Assembly: GCA_030062745.1 (NCBI GenBank)
Contig: CP099841.1
Coordinates: 8,367,001 to 8,431,000 of the forward strand
Source: Capitulum mitella
Lineage: Eukaryota > Arthropoda > Thecostraca > Pollicipedomorpha > Pollicipedidae
Direction: 5' to 3'
DNA: 64,000 nucleotides
Shown here: positions 3,346 through 57,145 of the stretch, piece by piece
How positions within the stretch are numbered: position 1 is the stretch's first letter
How the letters are laid out: the number at the start of each line of letters is the position of its first letter
The notes under the pieces: generated by a model
Databases searched by the model: none
What the model saw: only the letters and a program-made list of their open reading frames with translations
Told to the model about the DNA's origin: nothing
Program-made: the position numbers and the translations under genes

Positions 3346-6008
3346 GTATGTCTGACGCCGTCCTTGCCCAAATGGATCGATATCCGGCTGGAAAGAAACG
3401 TGTGCCTCTGTGAATGGTGCTTAGGATAATGTGCCACATTTTAGCGAAGAAACCCATCCGTGGACGGCGATGAAGATTATCTGTCGCATAGTCGACATTA
3501 TAAGTGTGATAGTGAGTCACAGCCGCCTTTTCGTCGCTTTTGCTACATGGGGAATCGCATGAGTCTGTAATGGGAACGACTCTCTGGGAGCCTTAGAACT
3601 CACTGAGGAAGGCTCGACCACTGCCTGACGCGGTTCTGACCAAGTTTTGGTTTACGTAGTGCGTCATTACACCAGTCATGAAAACGAGGAGCAGCTGTGG
3701 CTCTCGTCGTAAACTCTCCGCTGTGGTCCTATCAACATTTCACGGAATACTGGGAGCTAGAAGCTGACGTTCTGAAATAACGCAGCCTGGTCCGAGAAAA
3801 GCAACAATATAAGATCAGCACTATGAGAGCCGAAGTGAATTTTAGCCACGACATGGAACGTTTGTTTTGAGCCTCGATCCGCTAAGGGCCACAAGAGATC
3901 GGTCCGCTGTTTACGGTTAGATGTTGTGAGTGGCGAGTGGCTGTTCGGTTTCCAAAACTTACGTCCAGTTTTGGCAAGGGATGCTTGTCCGTCTAATGTA
4001 TTACTCGTGGTCTGAAAGCTTTCAAGGGCTCCGCCACGGAGCCAATAAACGGCACTAAATGCAAATGCCCAGAACGTAACCCGGGGCTGTTCGTGGGTGT
4101 TACAGGCTCAGTTCATCGCCCAGTCCATTGGGCAAGCCTTCCAAGTGGCCTACATGGAGTTTCTCAAGGCCAATGGCATTGACGACAACGGCTTTGTGAA
4201 GGAAATGGACTACCAGGAGGTGCTCAATTCACAAGAGATTTTCGGCGAAGAGCTGAAAATGTTTGCCAAGAAGGAGTTACAGAAAGAGGTGCGTAACGAG
4301 GACTCATCGTTTCACTGTGCCCAAACCAAGACCAGATTATAATCGTTTCGAATCAGTTTTGAACTCATTCGGGAATTTCACACCTTTGTCGTGAATCAGA
4401 ATCAGAATCAGAATCGATTTACGGAAGAACGCAGTAAATCAGAATAAGGATCGAATGCAGACTTCTCGCTTTTAGATATTCATTGAATTGGAACTAAATC
4501 TGCTCATTTTTCAAAGTCGGTTTAAACCGAAAATGGCATCGATGCGCAGCCCAGTGAATCAAGCGGCGAATCGATTCACCTGAAGCGAATCAGCCACAAG
4601 TTTGCCCATGGCTGACACCAACGTAGAGCCTGCCACTGGCTGACCATTTATATGAAAGTTGGAAGTATTCAGTAAAGCACCATGATATCTGTCGTGTGAG
4701 AGTAACGGGATGTAACATATACTGGTTTGCGTATGCTGCGTAAACACCGTACAGTTGTGTGCCAATGCGGGGCTCTAAGGACATGCCGATCCCCGCCGTC
4801 AGGTGGTGGTTCCGAAGCAGAAAGGCGAAATCCTGGGCGTGGTGATCGTCGAGTCCGGCTGGGGCTCGCTGGTGCCGACCGTGGTGATCGCCAACCTGGC
4901 GCCGGCCGGCGCCGCCGCCCGCTGCGGCCTGCTCAACATCGGCGACCAGATCATCGCCATCAACGGCATCAGTCTGGTCGGCCTGCCGCTGGCCAGCTGC
5001 CAGGCCTACGTCAAGAACACCAAGCAGGCGACGGTCGTCAAGCTGACGGTGGTGCCGTGCCCGCCGGTGGTGGAGGTGCGGATCCGGCGGCCGGACACCA
5101 AGTACCAGCTGGGCTTCAGCGTGCAGAACGGCGTGATCTGCAGCCTGCTGCGCGGCGGCATCGCCGAGCGCGGCGGCGTCCGCGTCGGCCACCGCATCAT
5201 CGAGATCAACAGCCAGAGCGTGGTGGCCGTGCCACACGAGCGCATCGTCAGCCTGCTGGCGACCTCGGTCGGAGAGGTAAGCAGGGGAACTTGCTGGTTA
5301 CCTTCATCGGGGAGCTGAACTGGTGCGGGAGTCTTTGGCCTCCCTGTCGGAGAGGTGAGCTGCCATGTCAGCGGGATGGTTAATACGGCAGGAGGGTGGT
5401 TAGGTGCCAACCGGCGGCCACAGATTCATTGTTATTTAGGGTAAAGCTCCAGCTTTCACTGGCGTCCAAAACATCCTAACTCTGTGGCCGCCGATTGGTA
5501 TTTAATCACTCTGTGATAGTCACACCTATATGCTGTTGTTATGTTGCATATACTATTGTTATGTAATGCAGTATACTGTTGTTGTGTTACCATGCCAAGC
5601 TATTGTTCAATGGCATAAGTAAGTTGTTCCCTGAAGGGATTAATTTTGTGGTCTGCCGCTCGTGCGTTGAAGAAGGCATGGCTCATTAAGCAGCATTACG
5701 CAGTTATTTAAAGGCGCGTTTTTGTTGCAGTAATATTGGCATCGTTCTATCGTGGTGTCTAAAATATGTCGTAATCGAATGGTGATTGAACCCTTGTGCA
5801 CTACATGCACTACATCCTTATGCTCTACATGCACAAATAAAAACTTCTAATGGAAGATGCACGCCAGTCGTATCATGGGACACATCGTCGTGACTGTCGT
5901 TTTTAACTGACATGGAGCCATTTTCCGCTGGCGCAGATCCTGATGAAGACGATGCCGACCTCACTGTTCCGGCTATTGACGGGCCAGGAGACGCCTCTCT
6001 ACATCTGA
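3181..6008 (+). CDS. APBA (X11/Mint, lin-10 family): X11/Mint/APBA-family adaptor, last four exons (5' partial)
   Basis: The coding segments are 3181-3345, 4106-4288, 4803-5276 and 5937-6008, all in phase 0 with GT-AG introns, giving 297 residues. Exons 1 and 2 encode the second half of a PTB domain. Exon 3 holds the two tandem PDZ domains. The last exon supplies the C-terminal tail ending PLYI. In this family the PTB domain binds the cytoplasmic NPTY motif of APP-like proteins, and the PDZ pair binds channels, neurexins and other membrane proteins in Golgi traffic and at synapses. From published work on Mint proteins, the C-terminal tail can dock into PDZ1 and close the module; the tail is conserved here. 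The N-terminal region and the first half of the PTB domain are missing and must lie upstream. I see no internal frameshift. Identity is firm at family level; APBA1, 2 and 3 are vertebrate paralogue names and cannot be told apart here. Confidence 0.93.
4106..4288 (+). CDS. APBA: X11/Mint exon: PTB C-terminal helix and linker
   Basis: The exon has 61 codons, beginning [20 protein letters not shown], which is the long C-terminal helix that lies against the peptide groove of X11 PTB domains. The following linker ([20 protein letters not shown]) is also typical of the family. The acceptor is GTTACAG and the donor GTGCGT, a weaker but usable 5' site. Confidence 0.93.
4385..4575. repeat. GAATC-rich degenerate repeat tract
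   Basis: Multiple GAATCA, GAATCGATTC and similar hexamers to decamers are spaced irregularly through this intronic stretch, including four near-perfect GAATCA units at 4393-4416. The same motif set recurs at 20255-20470. Confidence 0.6.
4803..5276 (+). CDS. APBA: X11/Mint exon: PDZ1-PDZ2 tandem
   Basis: The exon has 158 codons. PDZ1 runs from the [20 protein letters not shown] segment through [23 protein letters not shown]2 follows directly after [20 protein letters not shown] and contains [19 protein letters not shown]. The tight PDZ-PDZ junction without a linker is characteristic of X11/Mint. GC content is far above the surrounding introns. The acceptor is CGTCAG and the donor GTAAGC. Confidence 0.95.
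5937..6008 (+). CDS. APBA: X11/Mint terminal coding exon
   Basis: The exon has 23 codons and a TGA stop. It reads [20 protein letters not shown] and then LYI, the conserved carboxyl end of the family, joined in phase to the S-V-G-E that ends the previous exon. The acceptor is GGCGCAG. The exon lies inside a different, unrelated longer open frame and would be missed by length-based gene calling. Confidence 0.95.
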   Translation: MLMKTMPTSLFRLLTGQETPLYI

Positions 6009-15434: not shown

Positions 15435-18400
15435 GTATGACTTGTAATTTGTGAGAGCAGATGTCCTTGGTGCTTAAGTTGTGAAGCATATGGATGTTGT
15501 TTATGGGGTTGTTGCTGTTGAGTAGAATTGGCATACTCACCATATTGCTTTAATAAATGTAGTGGAAAGACTTACCACTGGTGCAGATTTATGGGGATTC
15601 AGATGTTCGTTCTTGCTGGGAAATGGTCAAGGTTGGGAAGGTGTTATTTTTAGTTTTTGTGTTGAAGAATACCGGAAAATATGTGTTCCAAAAGATTTAT
15701 ACTCCAAAGGTTAGTTCATGCGCCTCCTTTAAAAAGCTTTATTGAAGATGTGCTGACAGTTGTACCTTGGGAAGCAAATAACTGTTCCTTATGGTAAGAA
15801 GTAGGTATGATGTCACAGCTGCTGACTTATGCCAAGAATGCCAACTTAAACCAGTGTTACTGTGGGCAAAAATCTGTACTCCAAAACAAATTTTACTCCA
15901 ATACCAATAACAAACTAAATTTTAAGCCCCAAATATGATACTCCACTTCGTGTCTTAGTTTGGTGTCAGGGGATTGTTGTAGTATTAGGCTCAATTTCGG
16001 CGTTTGCATTTGGTTCACCTGTCAATAATATTTTGACCTGTGCTTGCTGTCAGCATTTCTGCTAGTTGAGCATGGTTATATCAAACAGGAAGTTTAGGAG
16101 ATGGTGTTCTCTAACTTTCGGTCTGCAATGCTGGGACTGACTTCTGAATTGTTTTCTTGCCATGGTTGATGCCTTTTTTGTTGGATCCAGTGTTAATGAA
16201 GTAAACAGTAATTCCAGCTGTGGAAGTTAGGGGAATGGCATTCTTGAAACGGTTTTCTCATTGTTTCAAGGATGTGCAATTTGAACCAAAGGCTTTTGGT
16301 TACAGTTCTAGAAGTGCAGATTTTTTAGCTTAGGTATCTAAAATCCACATATGGTATGGAAAAGAGAATTCTCCAAATGATTAATTGCATCTAAGTCTGT
16401 TTAAAGTCAACCTTTGCCTATCTATCTTATCAAATAATTTGCTAAATGATTCAATTCTGCTCATCTTAGTTTTATATTGACAAGACTTGTGAATCCATTT
16501 TGAGAGAATGCAAGCTACCACCCAGTATGTTTGCAGCCTTTTCATTGTTTTAGTAGTTCTCTGGATAGGTTTCCTTTGTGTCTTGAAATAGTCAGAACAT
16601 TGTCTGCAAGGTTGAATCAAGGCTATGTTCATTTAATGCTTAATGTTTGGAACTGGACAATGTGTTCAGTCTACAGTCTTCTGTGACCAAGTTAGCAGCA
16701 GGTGGCAGGATATGATTGGTTTGTCATAAAGTGTTTGGGTGACAATAATAGCAGAAAACAGTTTGGAATATCCAGAAGCATGTTATTGAAATGAATTTAC
16801 AAACACTCAAATCACTGCATGTCAGCTGCTTTGAAGCATAGCATAAGGATAGTAGATATTTAATGAATTTTGCCTTAAGAATTCAGCTTTTATAAGTGTG
16901 GTCTTCACAGGTACATTTTAAGTCATTATTTTAAGTGAATATTTCCCTGAATTCTGCCATAAGTTTTGTGTGCTATTCTGCATTGAGTTTTGACTATTTG
17001 CAATAAGAGGAAGTGCAGGTTAATTTCTGTATGACATTGTACAAGTAATGCTGCATGAATTTTTGCCAGTTTTTTACAATTGTTGTGAAGAATATGGTGT
17101 GGCCTTTGGGGGCATGCTGTGAATTGCTCCATTCTGGTGCTGATATTGATGTTTTGCATCAGTTGATGCGGTGGTATTTGCTTTGCTGAATTGACACAGT
17201 ACATCAGTTTAGGTTTTCAGGTTCCTTTACTTGGCACATGGCAAGTTCACATAGTTTATCTGGCAGTGTTCCATTGCAAACTGAATATCAGTTCTGGAAG
17301 TATTTTGGTAGCTTTGCAGTAGATGTGACTATGTGTTGGTTTTTCAGATGGGCAAGGGCTCATTCAAGTATGCTTGGGTGCTTGACAAGCTGAAGGCCGA
17401 ACGTGAGCGCGGCATCACCATCGATATTGCCCTGTGGAAGTTCGAGACCACCAAGTACTACGTGACCATCATCGATGCCCCGGGTCACAGAGATTTCATC
17501 AAGAACATGATCACGGGCACATCTCAGGCCGATTGTGCCGTGCTCATCGTCGCCTCTGGTGTCGGTGAGTTCGAGGCTGGTATTTCCAAGAACGGTCAGA
17601 CCCGTGAACACGCGCTGCTTGCCTACACCCTTGGCGTGAAGCAGATGATCATTGGCGTCAACAAGATGGACACCACCGAGCCCCCGTATTCTGAGGCTCG
17701 CTTCAAGGAAATTGTCAGTGAGGTGTCTGCGTACATCAAGAAGGTTGGATACGACCCTAAGACCGTGGCCTTTGTGCCCATCTCCGGATGGCATGGTGAC
17801 AACATGCTGGAGCCCAGTGACAAGATGCCATGGTACAAGGGATGGGAGACCACCCGCAAGTCTGGAAGTGGCTCTGGCAAGACTCTGCTGGAGGCCCTGG
17901 ACAACATTGATCCGCCCACGCGGCCCAGTGACAAGCCTCTGCGCCTGCCCTTGCAGGATGTCTACAAGATCGGAGGTATTGGAACGGTGCCCGTGGGCCG
18001 TGTTGAGACCGGTACCATCAAGCCCGGCATGATCGTCTGCTTCGCTCCGAATGGCCTGACCACTGAAGTGAAGTCCGTGGAGATGCACCACGAGTCCCTG
18101 CCAGAGGCCCTGCCCGGTGACAACGTCGGTTTCAACGTGAAGAACGTGTCTGTCAAGGAGCTGCGCCGCGGCTACGTCGCGTCCGACTCCAAGAACAAGC
18201 CGGCCACCGGTTGCGAGGACTTCACGGCTCAGGTCATCATCCTGAACCACCCGGGACAGGTGTCTGCTGGCTACACCCCGGTGCTGGATTGCCATACGGC
18301 TCACATCGCCTGCCGGTTCGCCGACCTGCAGCAGAAGGTTGACCGCCGTACCGGCAAGGTCACCGAAGAGGCTCCCAAGGCCCTGAAGTCGGGAGATGCG

Positions 18401-18586
18401 GCCATCATCAAGCTGATCCCGAGCAAGCCCATGGTTGTGGAGACCTTCACCGACTTCCCGCCCCTGGGTCGGTTCGCCGTTCGCGACATGAGGCAGACGG
18501 TGGCTGTCGGCGTCATCAAGGCGGTCACCCCGAAGGTGGTGTCTGGCAAGGTCACCAAGGCCGCCGAAAAGGCCTCTAAGAAATAG
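15291..18586 (+). CDS. EF1A (eEF1A): Elongation factor 1-alpha, complete, two coding exons
   Basis: The coding segments are 15291-15434 (codons 1-48) and 17348-18586 (codons 49-460 and TAG), interrupted by a 1.9-kb intron. The product is the GTPase that delivers aminoacyl-tRNA to the ribosomal A site in the cytoplasm. All nucleotide-binding motifs are intact: GHVDSGKS at residues 14-21, DAPGH at 91-95 and NKMD near 153-156. Domain 2 ([19 protein letters not shown]) and domain 3 ([20 protein letters not shown]) are also conserved. The length of 460 matches the family (about 462). The ATG lies in a good context (CCACCATGG). Exon 2 is strongly GC-biased at third positions, as expected for a very highly expressed gene. 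Substitutions such as SGSGSG near residue 220 are unusual but lie outside active sites. The alternative of a processed pseudogene is excluded by the intron. Confidence 0.98.
15435..17347 (+). other. EF1-alpha intron 1
   Basis: The intron is 1.9 kb, AT-rich, starts GTATGA and ends TTTTTCAG. No repeat family of this window is recognised in it, which makes it the cleanest long non-coding stretch here. Short minus-strand open frames at 15352 and 16381 show no domains. Confidence 0.9.
17348..18586 (+). CDS. EF1A: EF1-alpha main exon
   Basis: The exon has 413 codons including the stop. It carries the rest of the GTPase domain and domains 2 and 3. The antisense strand is also open for 413 codons (18601-17360), an effect of the biased codon use; that frame is not a gene. 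The C-terminus is [12 protein letters not shown]. Confidence 0.98.
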
Positions 18587-22330: not shown

Positions 22331-23417
22331 ATGGAAAGAAAAGACTTAGCTGAGATAGAAAAATCTAAAAAAATGAAAGATATTAAGTAGAAAACATAAA
22401 CAATCTGTGAGTCATTCTCCCTAGCGCTTAAAGTTATTGTGAGGTTTTCTCGTTCCGTTGTAAAAAAGAATACATAAAGAACGCAGCGTTCACAGCGGAG
22501 TTCACCATTTCTGACTGCAGGCAAAAGGCAAGGGCGATGCCAGTATAATACGCAGAATGCCATTATAGCGCCTTGGTAGGCCTAGAATATCTGGCTTGAT
22601 AAGCATTCTTTACAAATACTAAGGTATGTCCATTGAAGCATATTGCCGCTTAATACAGTTGTACAAGAGTATTTGAGCCAGATAAAAATGTTTGGAAAAC
22701 ATAAAAATGATGCACCACGAAATGGGCTGCTGAGCATGTACTGACTGTCGTTGCACTGTTTTGAGGTTGAGTCCCACCCTTGCAAATTGTGTCTCAACCC
22801 TTCCGAACTGAGAAGAAAAAGTAGTGCTCAGAGAAACCTAGGAACTGTCAGTTACATCGACAGTCTGATATCACAGGGTACGCTGCTCCTGAAACGGTTT
22901 TGTAGGCTGACATTACAACGTCTCGATCGTACACCGGCAGGCCAAACATCCGGTAATATCCACAGGGGTGTGGTTTCCTATCTCTTTGTGGGTGCTGGGG
23001 CAACCACAATACGACTTGGACGCCCACAACTTAAAGTATGTTTAAATATTCAGATATAATTATATTCTCAGGCCCATGACGTTGACCACCTAAAATCAGC
23101 TTTATCAGCAACAATCGGAACTTATTTACTTCATTGTCTCCCACTTATTGCTTTTGCCCAACACCCGTCAGGTAAAATTGTGTGAAGTTGGCCCTGGGGC
23201 AAGCTCCTCCATTAAAGGGAGTGTTTCTACTCAGATCGTGATTGTTAACTGCACGCATGCGACTGAATAGTACATTTTTATGAATCAAAGCGTAGGTAAC
23301 ATTCATTCTTGCCAACTCGTTTTCGTTAGCTCATATGTTACTAGTGTAAGTACGCTGGTTGCCAGCCCAAGTTTTACCTATTCACCACAGTTTCCTTTCA
23401 TCACTGAAATGACCGAC

Positions 23418-23424
23418 AAAACGT
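23418..23424 (+). repeat. Target-site duplication, left
   Basis: AAAACGT immediately precedes the left end of the foldback element and is repeated in direct orientation at 33942-33948. Confidence 0.75.
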
Positions 23425-23606
23425 GATGTGTGTCAAGACAGCCCACGGTCAGCCCACGCTCAGCCCACGCTCAGCCCATAAAAGCGACCCCTCCAAAAGC
23501 GGCCAAAATGCACCATATGATGCATCTCGACGAGCTGAACACGATGGTGCAATTTAATGTTGGGTGCATCCAATACCTTAGCCTGCAGAGCCAATTATCA
23601 ATCAAG
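23425..23606 (+). repeat. Foldback element, left unique cap
   Basis: The cap has four GCCCACG(G/C)TCA-type short repeats at 23441-23478, then CCATATGATGCATCTCGACG and a stretch that reads MHHMMHLDELNTMVQF in one frame. The same sequence lies reversed at 33757-33941, nearly base for base. The open frame is short and probably incidental. Confidence 0.8.
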
Positions 23607-26450
23607 GGGAGAGAGTTTCTCACTAATATTCACAGCCGACTGCATATAGTCGAGTAGCATCTCAAACGACTCCCCGTGTCAAGCCGAGCTCAAAACTACC
23701 TCTTGTTTATCAATATCTTTTCAACTTTTTGAGAAACATACATCCAGAACCGGTTTTTCACCTAATGTTTTATTTCCCATAGGCTTTAACATTGAGGGCA
23801 ACGGTCGTGAATTGGCCGGCACCTGCGATTTTTCTAATTTTTTGTGTATGGGTACCCTGACCAGGAACACACTGCCTGGCAGTGAAATTTGCCGGGTGCA
23901 TTGATATTCTCACCGATTACAAGGGGTGAGAATTTCTCACTAAAATTCACAACCGACTGCATATAGTCGAGTAGCATCTCAAACGACTCCCCGTGTCAAG
24001 CCGAGCTCAAAACTACCTGTTATGTATCAATATCTTTTCAACTTTTTGAGAAACATGCATCCAGAACCGGTTTTTCACCTAATGCTTTATTTCCCATAGG
24101 CTTTAACATTGAGGGCAACGGTCGTGAATTGGCCGGCACCTACGATTTTTCTAATTTTTTGTGTATGGGTACCCTGACCAGGAACACACTGCCTGGCAGT
24201 GAAATTTGCCGGGTGCATTGATATTCTCACCGATTACAAGGGGTGAGAACTTCTCACCGAAATTCACAACCGACTGCATATAGTCGAGTAGCATCTCAAA
24301 CGACTCCCCGTGTCAAGCCGAGCTCAAAACTGCCTCTTGTTTATCAATATCTTTTCAACTTTTTGAGAAACATGCATCCAGAACCGGTTTTTCACCTAAT
24401 GCTTTATTTCCCATAGGCTTTAACATTGAGGGCAACGGTCGTGAATTGGCCGGCATCTACGATTTTTCTAATTTTTTGTGTATGGGTACCCTGACCAGGA
24501 ACACACTGCCTGGCAGTGAAATTTGCCGGGTGCATTGATATTCTCACCGATTACAAGGGGTGAGAATTTTTTTTTTTAAAATTAACAACCCACTCCTTTT
24601 AGTCGAGTAGCATCTCAAACGACTCCCAGTGTCAAGCCGAGCTCAAAACTACCTCTTGTTTATCAATATCTTTTCAACGTTTTGAGAAACATGCATCCAG
24701 AACCGGTTTTTCACCTAATGCTTTATTTCCCATAGGCTTTAAAAAGGGGGGAGGGTTGGGTGTGGGGGGGCTTCTTTTTTTTTTTTTTTTTTTTTTTTTG
24801 GGATTCCCTTCCCCAAACACCCCCTCGGGGGGGGAAATTTGCGGGGGGTTTTTTTTTTTTCCCAATTAAAAGGGGTGGGGATTTCTCACCGAAATTCACA
24901 ACCGACTGCATATCGTCGAGTAGCATCTCAAACGACTCCCCGTGTCAAGCCGAGCTCAAAACTACCTCTTGTTTATCAATATCTTTTCAACTTTTTGAGA
25001 AACATGCATCCAGAACCGGTTTTTCACCTAATGCTTTATTTCCCATAGGCTTTAACATTGAGGGCAACGGTCGTGAATTGGCCGGCACCTACGATTTTTC
25101 CAATTTTTTGCGTATGGGTACCCTGACCAGGAACACACTGCCTGGCAGTGAAATTTGCCGGGTGCATTGATATTCTCACCGATTACAAGGGTGAGAATTT
25201 CTCACTAAAATTCACAACCGACTGCATATAGTCGAGTAGCATCTCAAACGACTCCCGTGCCAAGCCGAGCTCAAAACTACCTCTTATGTATCAATATCTT
25301 TTCAACTTTTTGAGAAACATGCATCCAGAACCGGTTTTTCACCTAATGCTTTATTTCCCATAGGCTTTAACATTGAGGGCAACGGTCGTGAATTGGCCGG
25401 CACCTACGATTTTTCTAATTTTTTGTGTGTGGGTACCCTGACCAGGAGCACACTGCCTGTCAGTGAAATTTGCCGGGTGCATTGATATTCTCACCGATTA
25501 CAAGGGGTGAGAATTTCTCACCGAAATTCACAACCGACTGCATATCGTCGAGTAGCATCTCAAACGACTCCCCGTGTCAAGCCGAGCTAAAAACTACCTC
25601 TTGTTTATCAATATCTTTTCAACTTTTTGAGAAACATGCATCCAGAACCGGTTTTTCACCTAATGCTTTATTTCCCATAGGCTTTAACATTGATGGCAAC
25701 GGTCGTGAATTGGCCGGCACCTACGATTTTTCTAATTTTTTGCGTATGGGTACCCTGACCAGGAACACACTGCCTGGCAGTGAAATTTGCCGGGTGCATT
25801 GATATTCTCACCGATTACAAGGGTGAGAATTTCTCACCGAAATTCACAACCGACTGCATATAGTCGAGTAGCATCTCAAACGACTCCCCGTGTCAAGCCG
25901 AGCTCAAAACTACCTCTTGTTTCTCAATATCTTTTCAACTTTTTGAGAAACATGCATCCAGAACCGGTTTTTCACCTAATGCTTTATTTCCCATAGGCTT
26001 TAACATTGAGGGCAACGGTCGTGAATTGGCCGGCACCTACGATTTTTCTAATTTTTTGTGTATGGGTACCCTGACCAGGAACACACTGCCTGGCAGTGAA
26101 ATTTGCCGGGTGCATTGATATTCTCACCGATTACAAGGGGTGAGAATTTCTCACCGAAATTCACAACCGACTGCATATAGTCGAGTAGCATCTCAAACGA
26201 CTCCCCGTGTCAAGCCGAGCTCAAAACTACCTCTTGTTTATCAATATCTTTTCAACTTTTTGAGAAACATGCATCCAGAACCGGTTTTTCACCTAATGCT
26301 TTATTTCCCATAGGCTTTAACATTGAGGGCAACGGTCGTGAATTGGCCGGCACCTACGATTTTTCTTATTTTTCGTGTATGGGTACCCTGACCAGGAACA
26401 CACTGCCTGGCAGTGAAATTTGCCGGGTGCATTGACATTCTCATTAATTA
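23607..26450 (+). repeat. Foldback element, left arm: about nine 317-bp units
   Basis: Units recur with the phrase CCGACTGCATATAGTCGAG at 23636, 23953, 24270, about 24589, 24902, 25218, 25534, 25850 and 26167, giving spacings of 313-319. Each unit contains CCAGAACCGGTTTTTCACC, GGTACCCTGACCAGGAACAC and the short inverted GTGAGAATTTCTCAC. Units are almost identical, which implies recent amplification or gene conversion. The fourth unit is damaged (see 24575-24890). Confidence 0.9.
24575..24890. other. Probable corrupted consensus inside the array
   Basis: Most of one repeat unit is replaced by text that follows the unit's outline but collapses into homopolymers: T-runs at 24569-24577, 24774-24799 and 24849-24860, and G-runs at 24747-24770 and 24826-24850. 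The neighbouring units on both sides are near perfect. This pattern fits low-quality assembly sequence better than mutation. Confidence 0.65.
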
Positions 26451-26690
26451 CAAGGGGTGGGAGTTTCTCCCGAAAACTCTGATCGCTGTAAACGCTGTCA
26501 AACTCTCCGTGTGATGTTCAGCTCAAAACTATCTTTAGTTAATTTCTATTTTCTCGAGTTTTGTGTAACATGCATATCTATTTGTTTTTTTCCACGTAAT
26601 GGTGTATTTCCTGTAGGGTTTGTTAGGCATGTGTCCCCTTGTTGTGGGGGCATCGCGCGTGATTTGTCTGACTCCTAGGATGTGCCTCTT
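26451..26690 (+). repeat. Foldback element, diverged innermost unit
   Basis: After GATTACAAGGGGT the sequence keeps the order of the 317-bp unit (TCAAACTCTCCGTGTGATG, AGCTCAAAACTAT, AACATGCAT, CACGTAATGGTGTATTTCC) with many substitutions. It appears to be an old unit that escaped homogenisation. No counterpart is present at the inner edge of the right arm. Confidence 0.65.
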
Positions 26691-27135
26691 TTTGTTATAT
26701 AGGCGACTACTTGTCCGATTTATCAAAGAAAAACGTGTGTTTCGGTTAATTCTCATCACCTGAAATACTGGCTCGAAAACATACGTATATTTATCTGGAA
26801 AACAATTGCATCTTTATACACCTGAAACGAGGAATTACAATCTCACAGGGATCAAATGCTCGCGATAATATCATCCCTTTAGAACGACTATTGGGACAGG
26901 GTTCTGTAGCGCAAAATCGTTGGTCAAAATCCTGTAGGGCATCGGTACCATTACTGGTGATATTTAGATTTTTATCAGCCGTTCTCAACGTTCAATGTGA
27001 AACAAAGTGATGCATACAGCACAACACGCATGATGTAGAGCCAGTTGTTTCGCTGCTTGTTGTTGTTTATCGGTGTTTTCGGGCGCGCCGACTTCTGAGG
27101 TTAGTGTGCGCTTATAACGAGGTTGCTTTGCCTCA

Positions 27136-29920
27136 CTAGTGAAGTGTGTAAAAAACATCGAAGTCAGCGTCTTTAAGAAATAGAAAGAGCTGTTTCGATT
27201 CAAGAAAGCGTGAGTTGTCTCCAAGTACATCGCAGAGCGTCAGAGACGAAGCGTGCTGTCCGAAGTGAAGTCAACGTTTTTCAGCCAAGTATGGACACGA
27301 AAGGACCACGTGGTTGACAGTGAGGAAGGCACCACATCGATGGCAGAGAGGCCTACCAGCCCTAAGCAACAGATAGCCATGGGTCGTATAAGTGACCGAT
27401 ACGCAGTTTGCACAGTATTATTTCCTCTCGTCTCGCCTTGCGAGAGCAGGATAACCATGAACCAGGCTTGGGTTTTACCATTGTGAGTTTATTGCCATCT
27501 GTCTCATCCCAAGAGCGCTGCCACTTGTTGTACAGGAAGTTCCTAATTGCCGGATAAAAGTCTCTGGCAAGATTGGCAGAGAACGTGTACATAGTGTCAG
27601 CGCTGCTCGCCTGGCAGCGGCATCGGTCAACTCGTTGTCCGTAATTCCGACGTGACTGGGTATCCAGCACAGGATGATTTTATTCCCAGTCCGATCCAGT
27701 TGTGTCAGACGTAGTAAAATGTCCTCTAGAAGGAAACATGCTGAATACAAAGATCTAAGAGCAAAAAGGCTTCTAAGGGAATCCGTTAAAATCAGGTATA
27801 GTGATTCGTCACCAACTTCGATGAAACATAACGCCTTGGTGATTGCTATCAATTCCGATGTAAAAACAGACGCGTGTGCAGGCAACGAGAACGATCGGGT
27901 GACAGAACCGCACACAAACGCACAACGAACACCACCGGCGGTCTCAGATCCGTCCATGTACGTCAGTGTGTATCCGCCATATGACGCCATGCGCTCCAGC
28001 GCCCTGGATCCCATTATATTTGGCATGGCTTCATTCTTTCTAATTTCTGCAAGCAAGGTGTTTATTGAAGGTGACGTCAAATGCCAGGGAGGAGAAGGCA
28101 GATGGCTTATTCGCTTCACCCCTCGAAGAGGAATTTCGCACTCCTGCAACAGAGCTCGCATTCGGAAGCCGAAAGGCGGAGTGCGCTGCTGCGATCCACC
28201 GCGAAGGAAGCTCACAGTGGACCGTGAAAAACCTGCGTCATACGTCGGGTGTAACGGGAATTGTCGCAGCTTCAGGGGATAGCGCATGCCGAGCATTTTC
28301 CTCCTCGTCGACAGTGGCGACTCGTGTGACTCTGCCATAAGGCTAACAGTGGGTGATGTGCGGAAGGCCCCTGTGATGATGCGGAGAGCGGTGTGATGGA
28401 TGGTGTCTAGAATGCACTTGCTGGATCACATGCGCTGTCATACACAAAACATGCATCATCCAGCTTGGAGCGGACGAGAGAACGATATCACAGCATTGTG
28501 CGTGACACACATTTTAATATGTTCAGAGACTTAAAACAGCGATCGCTTAAAGTTTCCAGATGTGCATTATACGTAAGGCGGCGGTCAAAATATACCCCGA
28601 GATATCTGGCCACAGACTCTGTTGGAATGCTCTGTCCATACAAAAGGAGAGTCATTTCACCGTATCTCCAGCGACGAAGAAGATGCATGGCTACGGTCTT
28701 ATTTTTTGAAAAACTGAACCCATTCATGGTGCTCCACCTCTCCACGCGGTCCACAGCCAGCTGGAGATGCCGTTCCATTGATGGTGCTCTTACTGCACTC
28801 GTCCAAATGGTAAAAACATCAACAAAAAAGAGCACGGCCAACAGACTGGGGGAGCACATCACCGATGTCGTTTATCATAACTGCGAATAACGCTGCACTT
28901 AACACACCGCCTTGGGGTACAACGTTTAATTGTGAGAACTTTTCGGAGAGTGTGTTTCCAACACGGACACGGAAAAAACGGTCAGCTAAAAAGAGTCGAA
29001 GAAAAGTACTCATACGACCACGTTTACCATATCTAAACAGCTTTACAAGAATACCATGAAACCAAGTGGCGTCGTAGGCGCCCTCAGTGTCAAAGAAGAC
29101 TGTGCCTATATGCCTGATCGCTTTAAAACCGGTACGAATCACAGTGTCTAGAGCTATAAGATGGTCCACTGTGTCCGGTTCTTTCTAAAACCGCACTGCG
29201 CGTTAGTAAAAACGTGATGCTGTTCAAAAAAAGGTCAATCGTGCGTTCACCATCTTTTCCATCAGTTTACAAAGTGATGACGTAAGAGAAATGGGTCTGT
29301 AGTGAAGAGGATCTAATCCACTTTTGCCTGGTTTCAGAAGTGGAACTATCACAGCTTCTCGCCAAACAGCTGGGAATTCATCTCTTAACCACAATGAGTT
29401 AAAATCCACCAAAAGCACGCGAAGTATGCAGGGCGGCAGATGTCTGAGCATGTCGTTGCGTATGGTATCAGGGCCTTCTGACACATTGCGAAGCTTGACA
29501 ATTGCCGATTCCAACTCCATCAAAGTGAATGGCTCATTGTATGCCTGCGATTCACTCGTGGAAAAATCTATCACTGTTTGCTCACATCGTGCTCTGTGCC
29601 GTAAGAACTGTGGGTTCGTGTTACCACCTTTGCTACGGTGTGACAAGGCTTGTGCAATCTCGTTAGCCACATCCAATGGCTGCGTCACAGTCTGGCCGTC
29701 CAAACGTAGCACAGGAAGCGGCACGGATGAAAACTGGCCAGAAACACACTTGTTACGCGCCCAGATCTGCGAAGTTGGCGTAAATCGGTTGAGCGTGTTA
29801 CCTACGCACGCCAGGAAATACGTTTCGCTTCCCTTATCGTGCGCCGAGCTAAAGCTCTCCCCTTCTTGAAGGCTATCAGGTTCTCCATGCGACTCCTGAC
29901 GTCAAAAGCACGGAATGGGC
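27136..29920 (-). pseudogene. Non-LTR retrotransposon remnant (RT and RNase H), 5'-truncated
   Basis: Minus-strand blocks in order are: 29917-29725 (MENLIAFKKGRALARRTIRE), 29724-29224 (SEGPDTIRNDMLRHLP and HYRPISLTSSLCKLMEKMV), 29169-28819 (FFDTEGAYDATW and VPQGGVLSAALFAVMINDI), 28862-28488 (RT active-site region and LGVYFDRRLTYNAHLE), 28338-27475 (RNase H: YMDGSE, TSELIAITKA, LTDSLRSL, WIPSHVG...NELTDAAAR) and 27670-27280 (a CHRCG...CP knuckle), with a stop at 27136. An RNase H after the RT, with this C-terminal Cys/His motif, places it in the I/R1/Jockey-like group. The reading frame is broken in at least five places, and the RT catalytic pair reads D-V instead of D-D. The endonuclease is absent. 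It cannot move itself. Confidence 0.92.
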
Positions 29921-32900
29921 GTCGGTTGTGAATTTTAGTGAGAAATTCTCACCCCTTGTAATCGGTGAGAATATCAATGCACCCGGCAAATTTCACTGCC
30001 AGGCAGTGTGTTCCTGGTCAGGGTACCCATACACAAAAAATTAGAAAAATCGTAGGTGCCGGCCAATTCACGACCGTTGCCCTCAATGTTAAAGCCTATG
30101 GGAAATAAAGCATTAGGTGAAAAACCGGTTCTGGATGCATGTTTCTCAAAAAGTTGAAAAGATATTGAGAAACAAGAGGTAGTTTTGAGCTCGGCTTGAC
30201 ACGGGGAGTCGTTTGAGATGCTACTCGACTATATGCAGTCGGTTGTGAATTTCGGTGAGAAATTCTCACCCCTTGTAATCGGTGAGAATATCAATGCACC
30301 CGGCAAATTTCACTGCCAGGCAGTGTGTTCCTGGTCAGGGTACCCATACACAAAAAATTAGAAAAATCGTAGGTGCCGGCCAATTCACGACCGTTGCCCT
30401 CAATGTTAAAGCCTATGGGAAATAAAGCATTAGGTGAAAAACCGGTTCTGGATGCATGTTTCTCAAAAAGTTGAAAAGATATTGAGAAACAAGAGGTAGT
30501 TTTGAGCTCGGCTTGACACGGGGAGTCGTTTGAGATGCTACTCGACTATATGCAGTCGGTTGTGAATTTCGGTGAGAAATTCTCACCCCTTGTAATCGGT
30601 GAGAATATCAATGCACCCGGCAAATTTCACTTCCAGGCAGTGTGTTCCTGGTCAGGGTACCCATACACAAAAAATTAGAAAAATCGTAGGTGCCGGCCAA
30701 TTCACGACCGTTGCCCTCAATGTTAAAGCCTATGGGAAATAAAGCATTAGGTGAAAAACCGGTTCTGGATGCATGTTTCTCAAAAAGTTGAAAAGATATT
30801 GAGAAACAAGAGGTAGTTTTGAGCTCGGCTTGCCACGGGGAGTCGTTTGAGATGCTACTCGACTATATGCAGTCGGTTGTGAATTTCGGTGAGAAATTCT
30901 CACCCCTTGTAATCGGTGAGAATATCAATGCACCCGGCAAATTTCACTGCCAGGCAGTGTGTTCCTGGTCAGGGTACCCATACACAAAAAATTAGAAAAA
31001 TCGTAGGTGCCGGCCAATTCACGACCGTTGCCATCAATGTTAAAGCCTATGGGAAATAAAGCATTAGGTGAAAAACCGGTTCTGGATGCATGTTTCTCAA
31101 AAAGTTGAACAGATATTGATAAACAAGAGGTAGTTTTGAGCTCGGCTTGACACGGGGAGTCGTTTGAGATGCTACTCGACTATATGCAGTCGGTTGTGAA
31201 TTTCGGTGAGAAATTCTCACCCCTTGTAATCGGTGAGAATATCAATGCACCCGGCAAATTTCACTGCCAGGCAGTGTGTTCCTGGTCAGGGTACCCATAC
31301 ACAAAAAATTAGAAAAATCGTAGGTGCCGGCCAATTCACGACCGTTGCCCTCAATGTTAAAGCCTATGGGAAATAAAGCATTAGGTGAAAAACCGGTTCT
31401 GGATGCATGTTTCTCAAAAAGTTGAAAAGATATTGATAAACAAGAGGTAGTTTTGAGCTCGGCTTGACACGGGGAGTCGTTTGAGATGCTACTCGACTAT
31501 ATGCAGTCGGTTGTGAATTTCGGTGAGAAATTCTCACCCCTTGTAATCGGTGAGAATATCAATGCACCCGGCAAATTTCACTTCCAGGCAGTGTGTTCCT
31601 GGTCAGGGTACCCATACACAAAAAATTAGAAAAATCGTAGGTGCCGGCCAATTCACGACCGTTGCCCTCAATGTTAAAGCCTATGGGAAATAAAGCATTA
31701 GGTGAAAAACCGGTTCTGGATGCATGTTTCTCAAAAAGTTGAAAAGATATTGAGAAACAAGAGGTAGTTTTGAGCTCGGCTTGACACGGGGAGTCGTTTG
31801 AGATGCTACTCGACTATATGCAGTCGGTTGTGAATTTCGGTGAGAAATTCTCACCCCTTGTAATCGGTGAGAATATCAATGCACCCGGCAAATTTCACTG
31901 CCAGGCAGTGTGTTCCTGGTCAGGGTACCCATACACAAAAAAATTAGAAAAATCGTAGATGCCGGCCAATTCACGACCGTTGCCCTCAATGTTAAAGCCT
32001 ATGGGAAATAAAGCATTAGGTGAAAAACCGGTTCTGGATGCATGTTTCTCAAAAAGTTGAAAAGATATTGATAAACAAGAGGTAGTTTTGAGCTCGGCTT
32101 GACACGGGGAGTCGTTTGAGATGCTACTCGACTATATGCAGTCGGTTGTGAATTTCGGTGAGAAATTCTCACCCCTTGTAATCGGTGAGAATATCAATGC
32201 ACCCGGCAAATTTCACTGCCAGGCAGTGTGTTCCTGGTCAGGGTACTCATACACAAAAAATTAGAAAAATCGTAGGTGCCGGCCAATTCACGACCGTTGC
32301 CATCAATGTTAAAGCCTATGGGAAATAAAGCATTAGGTGAAAAACCGGTTCTGGATGCATGTTTCTCAAAAAGTTGAAAAGATATTGAGAAACAAGAGGT
32401 AGTTTTGAGCTCGGCTTGACACGGGGAGTCGTTTGAGATGCTACTCGACTATATGCAGTCGGTTGTGAATTTCGGTGAGAAATTCTCACCCCTTGTAATC
32501 GGTGAGAATATCAATGCACCCGGCAAATTTCACTGCCAGGCAGTGTGTTCCTGGTCAGGGTACCCATACACAAAAAATTAGAAAAATCGTAGGTGCCGGC
32601 CAATTCACGACCGTTGCCCTCAATGTTAAAGCCTATGGGAAATAAAGCATTAGGTGAAAAACCGGTTCTGGATGCATGTTTCTCAAAAAGTTGAAAAGAT
32701 ATTGAGAAACAAGAGGTAGTTTTGAGCTCGGCTTGACACGGGGAGTCGTTTGAGATGCTACTCGACTATATGCAGTCGGTTGTGAATTTCGGTGAGAAAT
32801 TCTCACCCCTTGTAATCGGTGAGAATATCAATGCACCCGGCAAATTTCACTGCCAGGCAGTGTGTTCCTGGTCAGGGTACCCATACACAAAAAATTAGAA

Positions 32901-33750
32901 AAATCGTAGGTGCCGGCCAATTCACGACCGTTGCCCTCAATGTTAAAGCCTATGGGAAATAAAGCATTAGGTGAAAAACCGGTTCTGGATGCATGTTTCT
33001 CAAAAAGTTGAAAAGATATCGATAAACAAGAGGTAGTTTTGAGCTCGGCTTGACGCGGGGAGTCGTTTGAGATGCTACTCGACTATATGCAGTCGGTTGT
33101 GAATTTCGGTGAGAAATTCTCACCCCTTGTAATCGGTGAGAATATCAATGCACCCGGCAAATTTCACTGCCAGGCAGTGTGTTCCTGGTCAGGGTACTCA
33201 TACACAAAAAATTAGAAAAATCGTAGGTGCCGGCCAATTCACGACCGTTGCCATCAATGTTAAAGCCTATGGGAAATAAAGCATTAGGTGAAAAACCGGT
33301 TCTGGATGCATGTTTCTCAAAAAGTTGAAAAGATATTGATAAACAAGAGGTAGTTTTGAGCTCGGCTTGACACGGGGAGTCGTTTGAGATGCTACTCGAC
33401 TATATGCAGTCGGTTGTGAATTTTAGTGAGAAATTCTCACCCCTTGTAATCGGTGAGAATATCAATGCACCCGGCAAATTTCACTGCCAGGCAGTGTGTT
33501 CCTGGTCAGGGTACCCATACACAAAAAATTAGAAAAATCGTAGATGCCGGCCAATTCACGACCGTTGCCCTCAATGTTAAAGCCTATGGGAAATAAAGCA
33601 TTAGGTGAAAAACCGGTTCTGGATGCATGTTTCTCAAAAAGTTGAAAAGATATTGAGAAACAAGAGGTAGTTTTGAGCTCGGCTTGACACGGGGAGTCGT
33701 TTGAGGTGCTACTCGACTATATGCAGTCGGCTGTGAATATTAGTGAGAAA
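29921..33750 (-). repeat. Foldback element, right arm: twelve 317-bp units
   Basis: The phrase GGTTGTGAAT recurs at 29924, 30241, 30558, 30875, 31192, 31509, 31826, 32144, 32461, 32778, 33095, 33412 and (as GGCTGTGAAT) 33729: twelve periods of 317 with one of 318. Units are the reverse complement of the left arm and differ at a few sites only (for example TTTTAGTGAG or TTTCGGTGAG at the junction, ATTGAGAAAC or ATTGATAAAC). The array stops abruptly at 29921 against retrotransposon sequence. Confidence 0.92.
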
Positions 33751-33756
33751 CTCTCA

Positions 33757-33941
33757 CCCCTTGATTGATAATTGGCTCTGCAGGCTAAGGTATTGGATGC
33801 ACCCAACATTAAATTGCACCATCGTGTTCAGCTCGTCGAGATGCATCATATGGTGCATTTTGGCCGCTTTTGGAGGGGTCGCTTTTATGGGCTGAGCGTG
33901 GGCTGAGCGTGGGCTGACCGTGGGCTGTCTTGACACACATC
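33757..33941 (-). repeat. Foldback element, right unique cap
   Basis: This is the reverse complement of 23425-23606, ending CTTGACACACATC. It contains the same row of TGAGCGTGGGC units near the end. Confidence 0.8.
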
Positions 33942-33948
33942 AAAACGT
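33942..33948 (+). repeat. Target-site duplication, right
   Basis: AAAACGT directly follows the right end and matches 23418-23424. With one ambiguous base at the ends the duplication could also be read as 8 bp. Confidence 0.75.
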
Positions 33949-34379
33949 GTACGCATGTCGTTAGCCTTAGCGATGTCGAAGCTGACAGCAGCTGACGAAC
34001 ATCAGAATTATGAATGCGGCCGTCATGTATTCAGGCAAGTATCGCTGTAGTTTCACGAACTGAATTTCCTCCGCAGATATGCATTACGTGAATAGGTCGA
34101 AATTCGTTGGTGTTGTTTGCCAAAAACAACCGTTGCTGCCGTTTGTAACTGCGTCTGGTACAGCATGACATTTCTGGGTAAGCGTCAGGTGCGTTCAAGA
34201 TTCAATGTGTTTTTGAGGTAACGGAAAAAACAGATGTATTCCTTTTAAGGATATCTTCGCCGTTCAGTCATCCATCATTTACGTCACACATCCTTCGCAA
34301 TTTACCTTCCGTAACATCTTTTTAAATTCATTTCTCTGAACTTTAGGCATAAATGCCTGTCACGATCTCCCCCTCCCCT

Positions 34380-36879: not shown

Positions 36880-37885
36880 TGCACGCGGGCCCGACGAACG
36901 GTTTTCGGGCAGAAGTTCGTTGGACTTAAGTTCGTAGGGGAATGGTTCGCCGGGTAAGAGCTCGTAAGGACAAAAGTTCGTCGGACAAAAGTCCGTTTAG
37001 GGCAAAAGTTCGTATCGCGAATGTTCGTATGGACAAAGTTCGTCCAGGGCAAAATTTCGTTTAGGACGAAAGTTCGTTTCGTTTAAGACGAGATGAATAG
37101 GACAAAAGTTTGCCTACAACACAAGTTCGGCCAGCGAAGGTTCGTATAAGACATAAGTTCGTCTCGGACAAGAGTTCGTCGAGGACGAAGGTTCATCTCG
37201 CAGAAATTCGTTTAGGACAAAAGTTCGTCTGGGACAAAAGTTCGTCCAGGGCAAAAAGGTTAGGATAGGTTAAGGTTAGGTTACTACTCTAGGCCCGTTC
37301 TTTTTCCTATACGAACCCGAAGTTTATGAACCTTCGGTTATGAACCTTTTCCTTACGAATGTTTTCCCTTACGAAAATTTTTCCTACGAAAACGTTTCCC
37401 ATACGAAACCTTTGCGGTACGAATCTTTTCCATTAGCGAGATGAACTTGCCCTGGACGAACTTTTGCCCTTGACGAACTCTGGTTCGAGACAAACTTCTG
37501 CGTGACGGACTTTTGTCCCAGCCGAACTTTTTCCCCATGCGAGCTTTTGCTTTGTACGAATTTTTACCCTAGACGAACTTCTGCGAAGAACTTTTGTCCC
37601 AGGCGAACCCTCGCCCTACACGAACTTTTGCCCTAGACGAGGTTCTGCAGGACCAACCTTTGTCCTGGACGAACTTTTGTCCTCGACGGACTTTTACCCT
37701 TGACGAGCTTTTGCCCCAGACGAACCTTTTCAAGACGAACTTTTGCACGACGAACTTTTGTCCTAGACGAACTCGTGCCCTTGACGAACTTTTACACGAC
37801 GAACTTCAGCACGACGAATTTTTGTCCGACAAACTTTTGTACGACGAACTTCTGCGACACGAACTTTTGCAAAAACTCCTGACAG
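36880..37885. repeat. Periodic AAAAGTTCGT array with a strand switch
   Basis: From about 36900 to 37250 the unit reads GGACAAAAGTTCGT(C/T), and from about 37290 to 37885 it reads GACGAACTTTTG(T/C)CC, its reverse complement. Spacing is about 17-22 bp with much variation. The translated frames (TNFCPRRTF-like) are artefacts of the repeat. Related arrays are at 44290, 51830 and 62335 (family F). Confidence 0.7.
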
Positions 37886-37910
37886 GCTTCCAGTCTTTTA
37901 AACAAATTTT

Positions 37911-38000
37911 TTAAAAGGGGGGGGGGGGGGACCCTTCTTTTTTTTTTTTTTTCTCCGGGGGGCCCCAGGGGGGGGCCCCCCCCCGGGGGCGCCGCCGGGC
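37911..38000. other. Homopolymer-collapsed stretch, probable sequence artefact
   Basis: Runs of G (37916-37930), T (37937-37952), then G and C runs to about 37990 join the periodic array to a normal GC-rich sequence. It has the same look as 24740-24860, so it may mark a gap fill or a mis-join. Confidence 0.5.
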
Positions 38001-55764: not shown

Positions 55765-57087
55765 TCACACGGTCTGAAACCTTCGGTTCGAGATGCTTGC
55801 CGATGTTTCGTATGCGTCCACCGTTGTTGAAATGACAGGCCTAAAGCAGTGAAATCCCCTGGTGCTTTTGATTTGTCTGGCTTCATCAAATCTACTCTTC
55901 AGCTTGGAGTCTTTTTTGGCTATGTCGGACTCCGAGACGTAGAAGAAGTGAATGCCTGTAGCAAACATTATTCACAGCTCTTAGTAGCCCATTAATATTT
56001 CCGCATCCAACAATGAACGAACTTAGTCAGCAGCTGTTATCGGTCATGCAGTACAGTATCGGAGAATACAGCTGTCCAAAAAATGTCTAAAATTTTTGCT
56101 GAATCGCGAAGTTATCTGACTATAGGTTAATTGATTTACTGAGATTACACCTTTTGTAGCTTATTGGTTTTGCAGGTTTTTCTTATGAGACATTGTCACT
56201 AAAATATCGATGGAATCGATGTGAGATTGTTCAGGCTTAATGAAAACAAGATTTGCAGTATAGAATATTATTCATTGTGTCTTACCATGCACTGAGGTTT
56301 TGCAGAAGAGAAACATGGCGTCAGGCGTGCAGATCTGGTCTGCCTCTGGTCTCTGCAGGCTGGCATGAGCTGTGAGTCTCTTTGTGGTGCCACCGATGCC
56401 GTCACATGGCCGCTTGCCGTGACAGGTGGCAAAGAAATGCCACTCACACTCTATCCCGAAGTCTTCTTTGCGCATGGTCATGTTCCTGATATTAAACTTG
56501 TTCTTGTACTGTGAGACGGCACCATCGGTGAAGCAGTGAACTTTGCGTACATCTGGGTGTCGAGATTTGACGCTCTCCAACACTTCACATTGGAACGCAA
56601 AAACAGCTTGTGTACTGTGTTTCAGGCTGTCGCTTATTACACAGTAACTATCACAATGCACTTCGTCGCCAGATTTCGTATACACTACGAAAGGGTGTAC
56701 CGTCGCTTGGGCATTTTGCCAATAAAATCCCTGAATTGAGTTTTGTACGACGAAAGAGTAATTTTCAGCAAAATCACCCATAACTATCGCCTCTTGGGCG
56801 GTTAGCCTACCTTTCAGCTCCTTTAGATGAGTGTTTTGTGCTTGTGCAATGTAGTGATGGGACCGAAGTCGTGCGATAGAGCTTGCTAAGGTGTCTATAA
56901 ACTCGTTCCTGGTTTGACGTACACAGGCAAGAGTTGTTCGATCTGTGCTCAACCACTGCTTGTATTCTACTTCCTCTACGCCCCAGGCCTCTTCCTCATT
57001 TAACAATGTTCGAAGTTTCCCGTCCCCGGGACATTCCTTACATTTGCCCAGCATGCACGTTTCTCTCTGAAGATCGCAAACTGTCAA
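55765..57087 (-). pseudogene. Transposase-like gene of unassigned family, two exons
   Basis: Exon 1 (to 56286) and exon 2 (55955-55765) join in phase: CAT-G/GC-ATT at donor GTAAGA and acceptor GCTACAG. Counting from 57087, residues 11-19 carry a C-x4-C-x2-C motif and residues 104-110 read GDFAENY. FTDGAVSQYKN starts near 186, EWHFFATCHGK near 215 and CDGIGGTTKR near 228. Two well-placed acidic residues (D105, D188) and the HGK...GGTTKR block suggest an RNase H-fold (DDE/D-type) transposase, but I cannot place the third catalytic residue. Exon 2 encodes IHFFYVSESDIAKKDS and ends TGA. The N-terminal part continues upstream in another frame (57334-57095, ending LSVDDLMK), so one frameshift near 57090 breaks this copy. 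Its position within the inverted repeats makes it the element's own gene. Confidence 0.75.
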
Positions 57088-57145
57088 CTTTCATGAGGTC
57101 GTCAACGCTAAGATCTGGTTGTGCTGACTTTAGCATGAGTTTTGG

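What the first reader, a model, noticed from the sequence alone, without database searches (positions are those of the whole stretch)
23418..33948. A 10.5-kb foldback-like transposon with arms made of a 317-bp satellite
Two arrays of the same 317-bp unit face each other, each capped by the same unique 180-bp end, with an inverted terminal GATGTGTGTCAAGACAG and a 7-bp direct flank, AAAACGT. Foldback and Galileo elements have this plan, but I do not recognise this sequence and no transposase is inside. It may be a new foldback family, and its satellite arms could seed genomic satellite DNA.
Basis: partly seen in the sequence, partly recalled or inferred. Interest (0 to 1): 0.85.

Follow-up and report, generated by a model that had tools for sequence, protein, structure and literature searches.

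The report
Satellite-armed foldback transposon, Mutator type
This is a real jumping DNA element with two facing arms of a 317-base satellite repeat around a dead retrotransposon; it carries no transposase that I could find, but relatives with similar ends in the same genome encode a Mutator-like transposase joined to a SUMO-protease-like domain.

Summary
The structure is real and is a transposon insertion. Element 23426-33940: identical 177-bp caps, facing arrays of a 317-bp unit (9.1 and 12.1 copies), a 3.4-kb loop. The flanking duplication is 9 bp (CAAAACGTG), not 7. Of 19 elements examined, 17 have a duplication at >=8/9 or exact at 10 bp; 0 of 342 mispaired flanks reach 8/9. Joined window flanks match 40 scored uninterrupted places; 4 of 6 fetched carry one exact CAAAACGTG. 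Loops keep 2.9-3.4 kb while arms vary from 2 to 20 unit matches. Most of the loop is a 5'-truncated non-LTR retrotransposon, read as a dead passenger.
Elements with the same terminal sequence carry transposase genes: 19 of 21 loci at >=53% identity lie in or beside such termini. One open frame reads 949 aa: D-D-CxxH-E motifs of Mutator type and a C-terminal Ulp1/C48 domain, in an element with 329-bp satellite units and an exact 9-bp duplication.
Best reading: a non-autonomous foldback mobilised in trans by a Mutator-related transposase (cross-mobilisation inferred). Closest known plans: Tetris, Rehavkus-1_TC. Almost no free 317-bp satellite was seen. A new variant of a known kind.

The parts
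23417..23425 (.). left target-site duplication CAAAACGTG
   Evidence: single exact copy in 4 of 6 fetched empty sites
23426..33940 (.). whole foldback element, 10,515 bp
23426..23602 (+). left cap (terminus ATGTGTGTCAAGACAG)
23439..23478 (+). 11-bp subterminal tandem repeats (CAGCCCACGCT), 3.6 copies; repeats of this kind are also in the caps of transposase-bearing relatives
23603..26475 (+). left array, 9.1 x 317 bp
26476..27062 (.). part of the loop not matched by the standalone retrotransposon copy L075
27063..29922 (-). 5'-truncated non-LTR retrotransposon fragment (start of RT, RNase H), read as dead; its 5' end abuts the right array
29921..33763 (-). right array, 12.1 x 317 bp, opposite orientation
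33764..33940 (-). right cap, identical to the left cap
33888..33927 (-). 11-bp subterminal tandem repeats of the right cap
33941..33949 (.). right target-site duplication CAAAACGTG
23276..23425 (.). left flank tested: part of a dispersed repeat that the element entered
33950..34099 (.). right flank tested: continuation of the same dispersed repeat

Best explanation
The window holds a non-autonomous foldback DNA transposon of the Mutator (MULE) kind. It inserted into a dispersed repeat and made a 9-bp duplication (shown). Its caps, with subterminal 11-bp repeats, are the sequences that a transposase would recognise (inferred). The transposase is supplied in trans by relatives with similar ends and their own satellite arms; one such relative has an open gene for a D-D-E-type transposase with a C-terminal Ulp1/C48 protease domain (gene and place shown; cross-mobilisation inferred). 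Arms differ in unit number between copies while caps and loop stay nearly fixed (shown), probably through unequal exchange, slippage or conversion between the inverted arms (inferred). The loop is mostly a dead retrotransposon fragment copied along as cargo (supported by shared frame-changing differences and lack of a coding signal). Repeated arm units may add internal transposase-binding sites, as reported for Galileo, perhaps through the 45-bp block shared by the 317-bp and 329-bp units (inferred).
For: TSD: of 19 elements (window's included) 11 are exact at 9 bp and 17 at >=8/9 or exact at 10 bp; 0 of 342 mispaired flanks at >=8/9 (exact 10 was not tested in the control). Empty sites: joined flanks match 40 scored places (of 617 candidates), all spanning the junction; of 6 aligned, 4 have one exact CAAAACGTG, one 1 change, one 4 changes. 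A second empty site: the flanks of the C8:2141k element align to window 37295-37686 and 37677-37961, overlapping by ten bases, the length of its TSD. 50 inward pairs and 0 others among 148 termini. Loop 2.9-3.4 kb, arms 2-20 unit matches in 19 elements. Transposase: of 21 loci at >=53% identity, 14 lie inside inverted pairs, 5 beside a single terminus, 2 near none. 949-aa open frame; C48 domain E=1e-7, also in all 5 homologues found, one of which hits Pfam MULE at E=4.6e-5, below the curated cut-off. That element has an exact TSD GGCCGGGTC and at least 2.9 copies of a 329-bp unit. A 12.2-kb copy with caps 94.4% like the window's holds a broken transposase gene.
Against: No copy with the window's own cap type and an unbroken transposase was found; the open genes sit in elements whose caps are 66-68% identical to the window's over 164-175 aligned bases, 83.7% over the first 86 bp for L057. 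The 12.2-kb copy with the closest caps has no matching TSD. Neither L058's protein nor the L057 pieces hit Pfam MULE; the DDE reading rests on motifs and weak hits of relatives. Weaker transposase loci (22, 7 more) lie near no listed terminus, and L078's frame has no C48 hit. L050's flanks are AT microsatellite and not informative; L047 matches only 9 of 10. 48 of 148 listed termini stay unpaired.
Confidence: 0.86

Rival explanations
1. Assembly or library foldback artefact, or a local inverted duplication, rather than a mobile element.
For: Arms are 99% complementary, as in artefacts.
Against: Dispersed copies with different flanks and own TSDs; empty sites; the two arms differ in unit number.
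Confidence: 0.02
2. The loop's reverse transcriptase is the element's own mobility gene, so this is a retro-type element with foldback ends.
For: The loop is kept in all 19 elements held and has long open stretches in shared positions.
Against: Ten frame-changing length differences from the standalone copy L075 are shared by 18 or 19 of 19 loops, and variable sites show no third-position excess (37/21/32 and 27/19/28 at positions 1/2/3). L075 may itself be damaged, so not every difference is a loop mutation. Related proteins elsewhere have frames of 1244 aa. The 9-bp TSDs and the transposase genes in cap-sharing elements fit a DNA transposase.
Confidence: 0.03
3. A P-superfamily (Galileo-like) foldback with 7-bp duplications.
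For: Long, internally repetitive inverted ends resemble Galileo.
Against: Duplications are 9-10 bp; the transposase in cap-sharing elements has MULE-like motifs and C48.
Confidence: 0.01
4. The mobilising transposase belongs to Rehavkus, a group allied to MULEs, rather than to MULE proper.
For: Rehavkus has 9-bp TSDs and a minisatellite feature (PMC6446971, passages); Rehavkus-1_TC is 9.5 kb with a 164-bp satellite in its inverted termini (PMC10218199, passages). L058's protein has tandem peptide repeats before the C48 domain.
Against: The PHD finger named for Rehavkus was not found by Pfam in the A1 members or L078. No Rehavkus sequence was available for comparison.
Confidence: 0.4

Closest known systems
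Tetris (Drosophila virilis foldback; PMC4079207, parts 1-4 of 6 read)
   Same: Non-autonomous; outer flanking domain, then tandem ~220-bp units, then middle domain; TSD 8-10 bp; varying unit number; placed by its authors in Mutator.
   Different: Unit 317 bp; a nearly constant loop with a retrotransposon fragment; no shared cap-unit block found here whereas Tetris shares 37 bp; transposase-bearing relatives found here but not by the Tetris authors; long free arrays reported for Tetris, not seen in the part of the list examined here.
Rehavkus, especially Rehavkus-1_TC of Tribolium (passages of PMC10218199 and PMC6446971)
   Same: 9-bp TSD; about 9.5 kb; satellite monomers (164 bp, mostly five and eight) in inverted termini; MULE-allied transposase.
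   Different: PHD finger not detected here; a C48 domain is not mentioned in the passages seen; sequences not compared.
Tm1 of root-knot nematodes and the Phantom MULEs (passages of PMC3169594, PMC6446971)
   Same: Foldback-like composite ends, 9-bp TSD, transposase-bearing and transposase-less members in one family.
   Different: Tm1 arm repeats are 13-15 bp; the word Ulp1 does not occur in the main text of either paper.
Galileo (P superfamily; PMC3688188, abstract and passages)
   Same: Long internally repetitive inverted ends; extra transposase-binding sites reported in its arm repeats.
   Different: Different transposase superfamily.
KI-MULEs and other ULP1-bearing plant MULEs (passages of PMC2528002)
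   Same: Mutator-like element with a ULP protease domain.
   Different: Plant elements; KI-MULEs lack TIRs and carry the ULP domain in reverse orientation.

Membership tests
Foldback transposons | long, internally repetitive inverted arms around a loop | tested here: met
Foldback transposons | mobile: dispersed copies with own TSDs and empty sites | tested here: met
Mutator (MULE) superfamily | 8-11 bp, mostly 9-bp TSD | tested here: met
   for this family (17 of 19); transposase-bearing relatives: 4 of 5 two-ended elements, and L057 exact at 9
Mutator (MULE) superfamily | D-D-E catalytic domain with CxxH and similarity to the MULE profile | tested here: inconclusive
   motifs D219, D293, C339-H342, E500 in L058's protein; Pfam MULE E=4.6e-5 in P0004 and 0.021 in L078, both below cut-off; no MULE hit for L058's own protein or the L057 pieces
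Rehavkus | 9-bp TSD and satellite or minisatellite in the termini | tested here: met
   literature
Rehavkus | PHD finger in the transposase | tested here: not met
   no PHD family in Pfam scans of the 6 A1 members or L078
Rehavkus | sequence kinship to Repbase Rehavkus transposases | not testable with these tools
   no Rehavkus sequence was obtained
Galileo / P superfamily | 7-bp TSD (recalled) | tested here: not met
Drosophila FB (NOF) | kinship of the transposase to NOF | not tested
   no NOF sequence obtained

The most novel reading that the evidence does not exclude
A branch of Mutator-allied transposons, here in a probably arthropod host, carries a transposase fused to a SUMO-protease-like domain and builds its own satellite arms in each subfamily (317 and 329 bp, perhaps 276 bp). 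Only a short block is kept between the 317- and 329-bp monomers because it works as an internal transposase-binding or promoter unit, so these transposons act as carriers and homogenisers of satellites.
Probability: 0.3. Interest if true: 0.68.

Novelty: new variant of a known kind. Interest (0 to 1): 0.52.

Why it matters
It is an unusually complete case of a satellite-armed foldback: dispersed copies with duplications, empty sites, a frozen cargo, and a transposase candidate with an open frame in the same genome, which the Tetris authors report that they could not find. This makes it possible to test what satellite arms do for transposition. A C48 protease domain fused to a Mutator-like transposase outside plants was not met in the passages seen: the 2026 arthropod MULE survey (PMC13359780) has 0 occurrences of Ulp1, C48 or peptidase in its main text. 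That the host is an animal is likely but was not shown.

Tried and rejected
Rejected: 7-bp duplication; Galileo membership; assembly artefact; the reverse transcriptase as mobility gene. Kinship of cap and unit: local alignment score 17 against a shuffle mean of 16.8. The 6 Pfam MULE hits elsewhere in the genome were not followed further: the nearest listed terminus is 59 kb away or more. A PDB sequence search with the L057 transposase piece gave one unrelated weak hit, E=0.073. Host identity was not settled: 477 Mb in 16 contigs resembles the barnacle Capitulum mitella (463.09 Mb, 16 chromosomes; PMC8416341, one passage), but nothing here proves it. Unit homogenisation: mean distance 0.020 within an arm, 0.023 between arms of one element, 0.037 between elements, over 200 full-length units; suggestive only, since arms are copied together.
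Full report
Observation. The window is G000:C3:8367001-8431000 of a 477-Mb genome in 16 contigs. Two arrays of a 317-bp unit face each other: 23603-26475 (9.1 copies) and 29921-33763 (12.1 copies). Each ends in the same 177-bp cap.

Copies. A search with the cap alone gave 40 scored matches of 275 candidates, each covering 176 or 177 of 177 bases, so 40 is a lower bound. I examined 19 elements with two caps: the window's and 18 fetched. In the 19, the loop between unit matches is 2.9-3.4 kb, while unit matches per arm run from 2 to 20. The window loop with its edges is 99.9% identical to that of C6:27025k over 3,799 bases, which suggests recent movement.

Duplications. Of 19 elements, 11 have an exact 9-bp duplication, and 17 have at least 8 of 9 or an exact 10; L047 matches at 9 of 10, and L050 lies in an AT microsatellite and cannot be judged. 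Mispaired flanks reached 8 of 9 in 0 of 342 cases; the control did not test 10 bp.

Empty sites. The window flanks, joined at one copy of the 9-mer, match 40 scored places (617 candidates) at 82-87% identity, all across the junction. Of six fetched, four carry exactly CAAAACGTG at the junction, one differs by one base and one by four. The two flanks of the element at C8:2141k align to window 37295-37686 and 37677-37961, overlapping by ten bases, the length of its own duplication: the window itself holds an empty-site relative of another insertion.

Termini. The terminal 22-mer with at most one mismatch occurs 163 times (73 forward, 90 reverse), the reversed control 0 times. I could list 148 of them (73 exact, 72 of the variant ATGTCTGTC..., 3 others); 15 are left out. 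The 148 form 50 inward-facing neighbour pairs within 16 kb, 1.4-14.9 kb long, and no neighbours in other orientations; 48 stay unpaired.

Loop. Window 27063-29922 matches a standalone sequence on C4 (L075) at 88.9% over 2,909 bases, ending where the right array begins. Of three translated pieces, one hits RNase H (E=5e-6), one weakly RVT_1 (E=0.12, below cut-off) and one nothing. In the genome, 151 matches to the RT piece were reported (150 of 1098 candidates scored), many at about 61% identity in frames of 1244 aa. Ten frame-changing length differences from L075 are shared by 18 or 19 of the 19 loops, and variable sites show no third-position excess. I read it as a dead passenger. L075 is not proved intact, so this is not a count of loop mutations alone. 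Of 40 scored loop matches (191 candidates), 25 lie in terminus pairs, 5 beside a single terminus and 10 near none; of these ten, nine are 85-92% matches that may be the free retrotransposon and one is 96%.

Transposase. C7:31579888-31586934 (L057) has the same terminus, 329-bp units, an exact 9-bp duplication GAAAAGACG, and protein-coding stretches in the loop that hit no Pfam family. Searching the genome with its 351-aa piece gave 75 matches. Merged by eye into loci, 21 have 53% identity or more: 14 lie inside terminus pairs, 5 beside one terminus and 2 near none. Of 29 weaker loci, 22 and 7 more lie near no listed terminus. The copy at C3:26147462 lies in a 9.9-kb element with duplication GGCCGGGTC and at least 2.9 copies of a 329-bp unit in the part of its right arm that I fetched. 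Its frame reads 949 aa from the first ATG of the fetched stretch; the stop-to-stop frame is 1181 aa, and C12:988460 has a frame of the same length that I did not fetch. Features: C56, C61, H90 and H93, zinc-finger-like by eye; D219, D293, C339/H342, E500; tandem peptide repeats; C48 protease domain at 820-917 with H833, D850, Q892 and C898 invariant among six sequences. All five database homologues, from ENA entries without names, also carry C48; one hits Pfam MULE at E=4.6e-5, below the cut-off. Of six transposase-bearing elements with both ends seen, five have duplications (L057, C3:26141, C2:13669 exact 9; C3:13640 exact 10; C2:1809 8 of 9) and C8:6605 has none. C8:6605 has caps 94.4% like the window's and a broken transposase gene, 64.6% identical over its first 398 residues.

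Arms. The 317-bp and 329-bp units share one 45-bp block (score 60 against a shuffled maximum of 29). A more distant transposase (L078, 43-44%; no C48 hit) is followed by 4.4 copies of a 276-bp unit; whether it sits between inverted arms was not shown. Of 279 genome matches to a 30-base stretch of the 317-bp unit, 185 lie in the 19 elements. Of the 100 listed, one, C4:30472350, is at no element that I know, judged by eye; 179 were not listed.

Mechanism. Shown: insertion with a 9-bp duplication, spread, nearly fixed caps and loop, variable arms, transposase genes inside cap-sharing elements. Inferred: that this transposase moves the window type in trans; that arms change by unequal exchange or conversion; that arm units add binding sites, as reported for Galileo (PMC3688188, abstract and passages).

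Known kinds. Tetris (PMC4079207, parts 1-4 of 6) has the same plan and TSD sizes, without a known transposase. Rehavkus-1_TC has a 164-bp satellite in inverted ends (PMC10218199, passages) and Rehavkus has 9-bp TSDs (PMC6446971, passages); its PHD finger was not found here, so I do not file this as Rehavkus. ULP1-bearing MULEs are described in plants (PMC2528002, passages). Searches for foldback, Rehavkus and Ulp1-MULE papers were made; no title or abstract start listed there described this element, but Repbase itself was not available.

Noticed in passing
window 17312-18586 +: Long EF-1alpha coding exon (Pfam GTP_EFTU, D2, D3).
   Followed up: partly
window 4779-5315 +: Two PDZ domain stretches in one open frame, syntenin-like by eye.
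   Followed up: partly
window 36907-37872: Degenerate 15-17-bp tandem repeat (AGGACAAAAGTTCGTCT type); part of it matches both flanks of another element of this family, at C8:2141k.
   Followed up: partly
window 56272-57090 -: 272-aa open frame, possibly another transposase by eye; no Pfam hit.
   Followed up: no
L078 (C7:13740900-13746400): More distant transposase with 27-bp coding tandem repeats in its N-terminal part, followed by 4.4 copies of a 276-bp unit.
   Followed up: partly
L057 3848-4276 -: Mariner-like fragment, by eye, in the loop of a transposase-bearing foldback.
   Followed up: no
G000 elements at C1:25055k, C5:6790k, C2:32960k: Some units are about 21-24 bp longer (spacing 338-341 instead of 317).
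   Followed up: no
G000:C4:30472350: A lone 317-bp-unit match away from any element known here.
   Followed up: no
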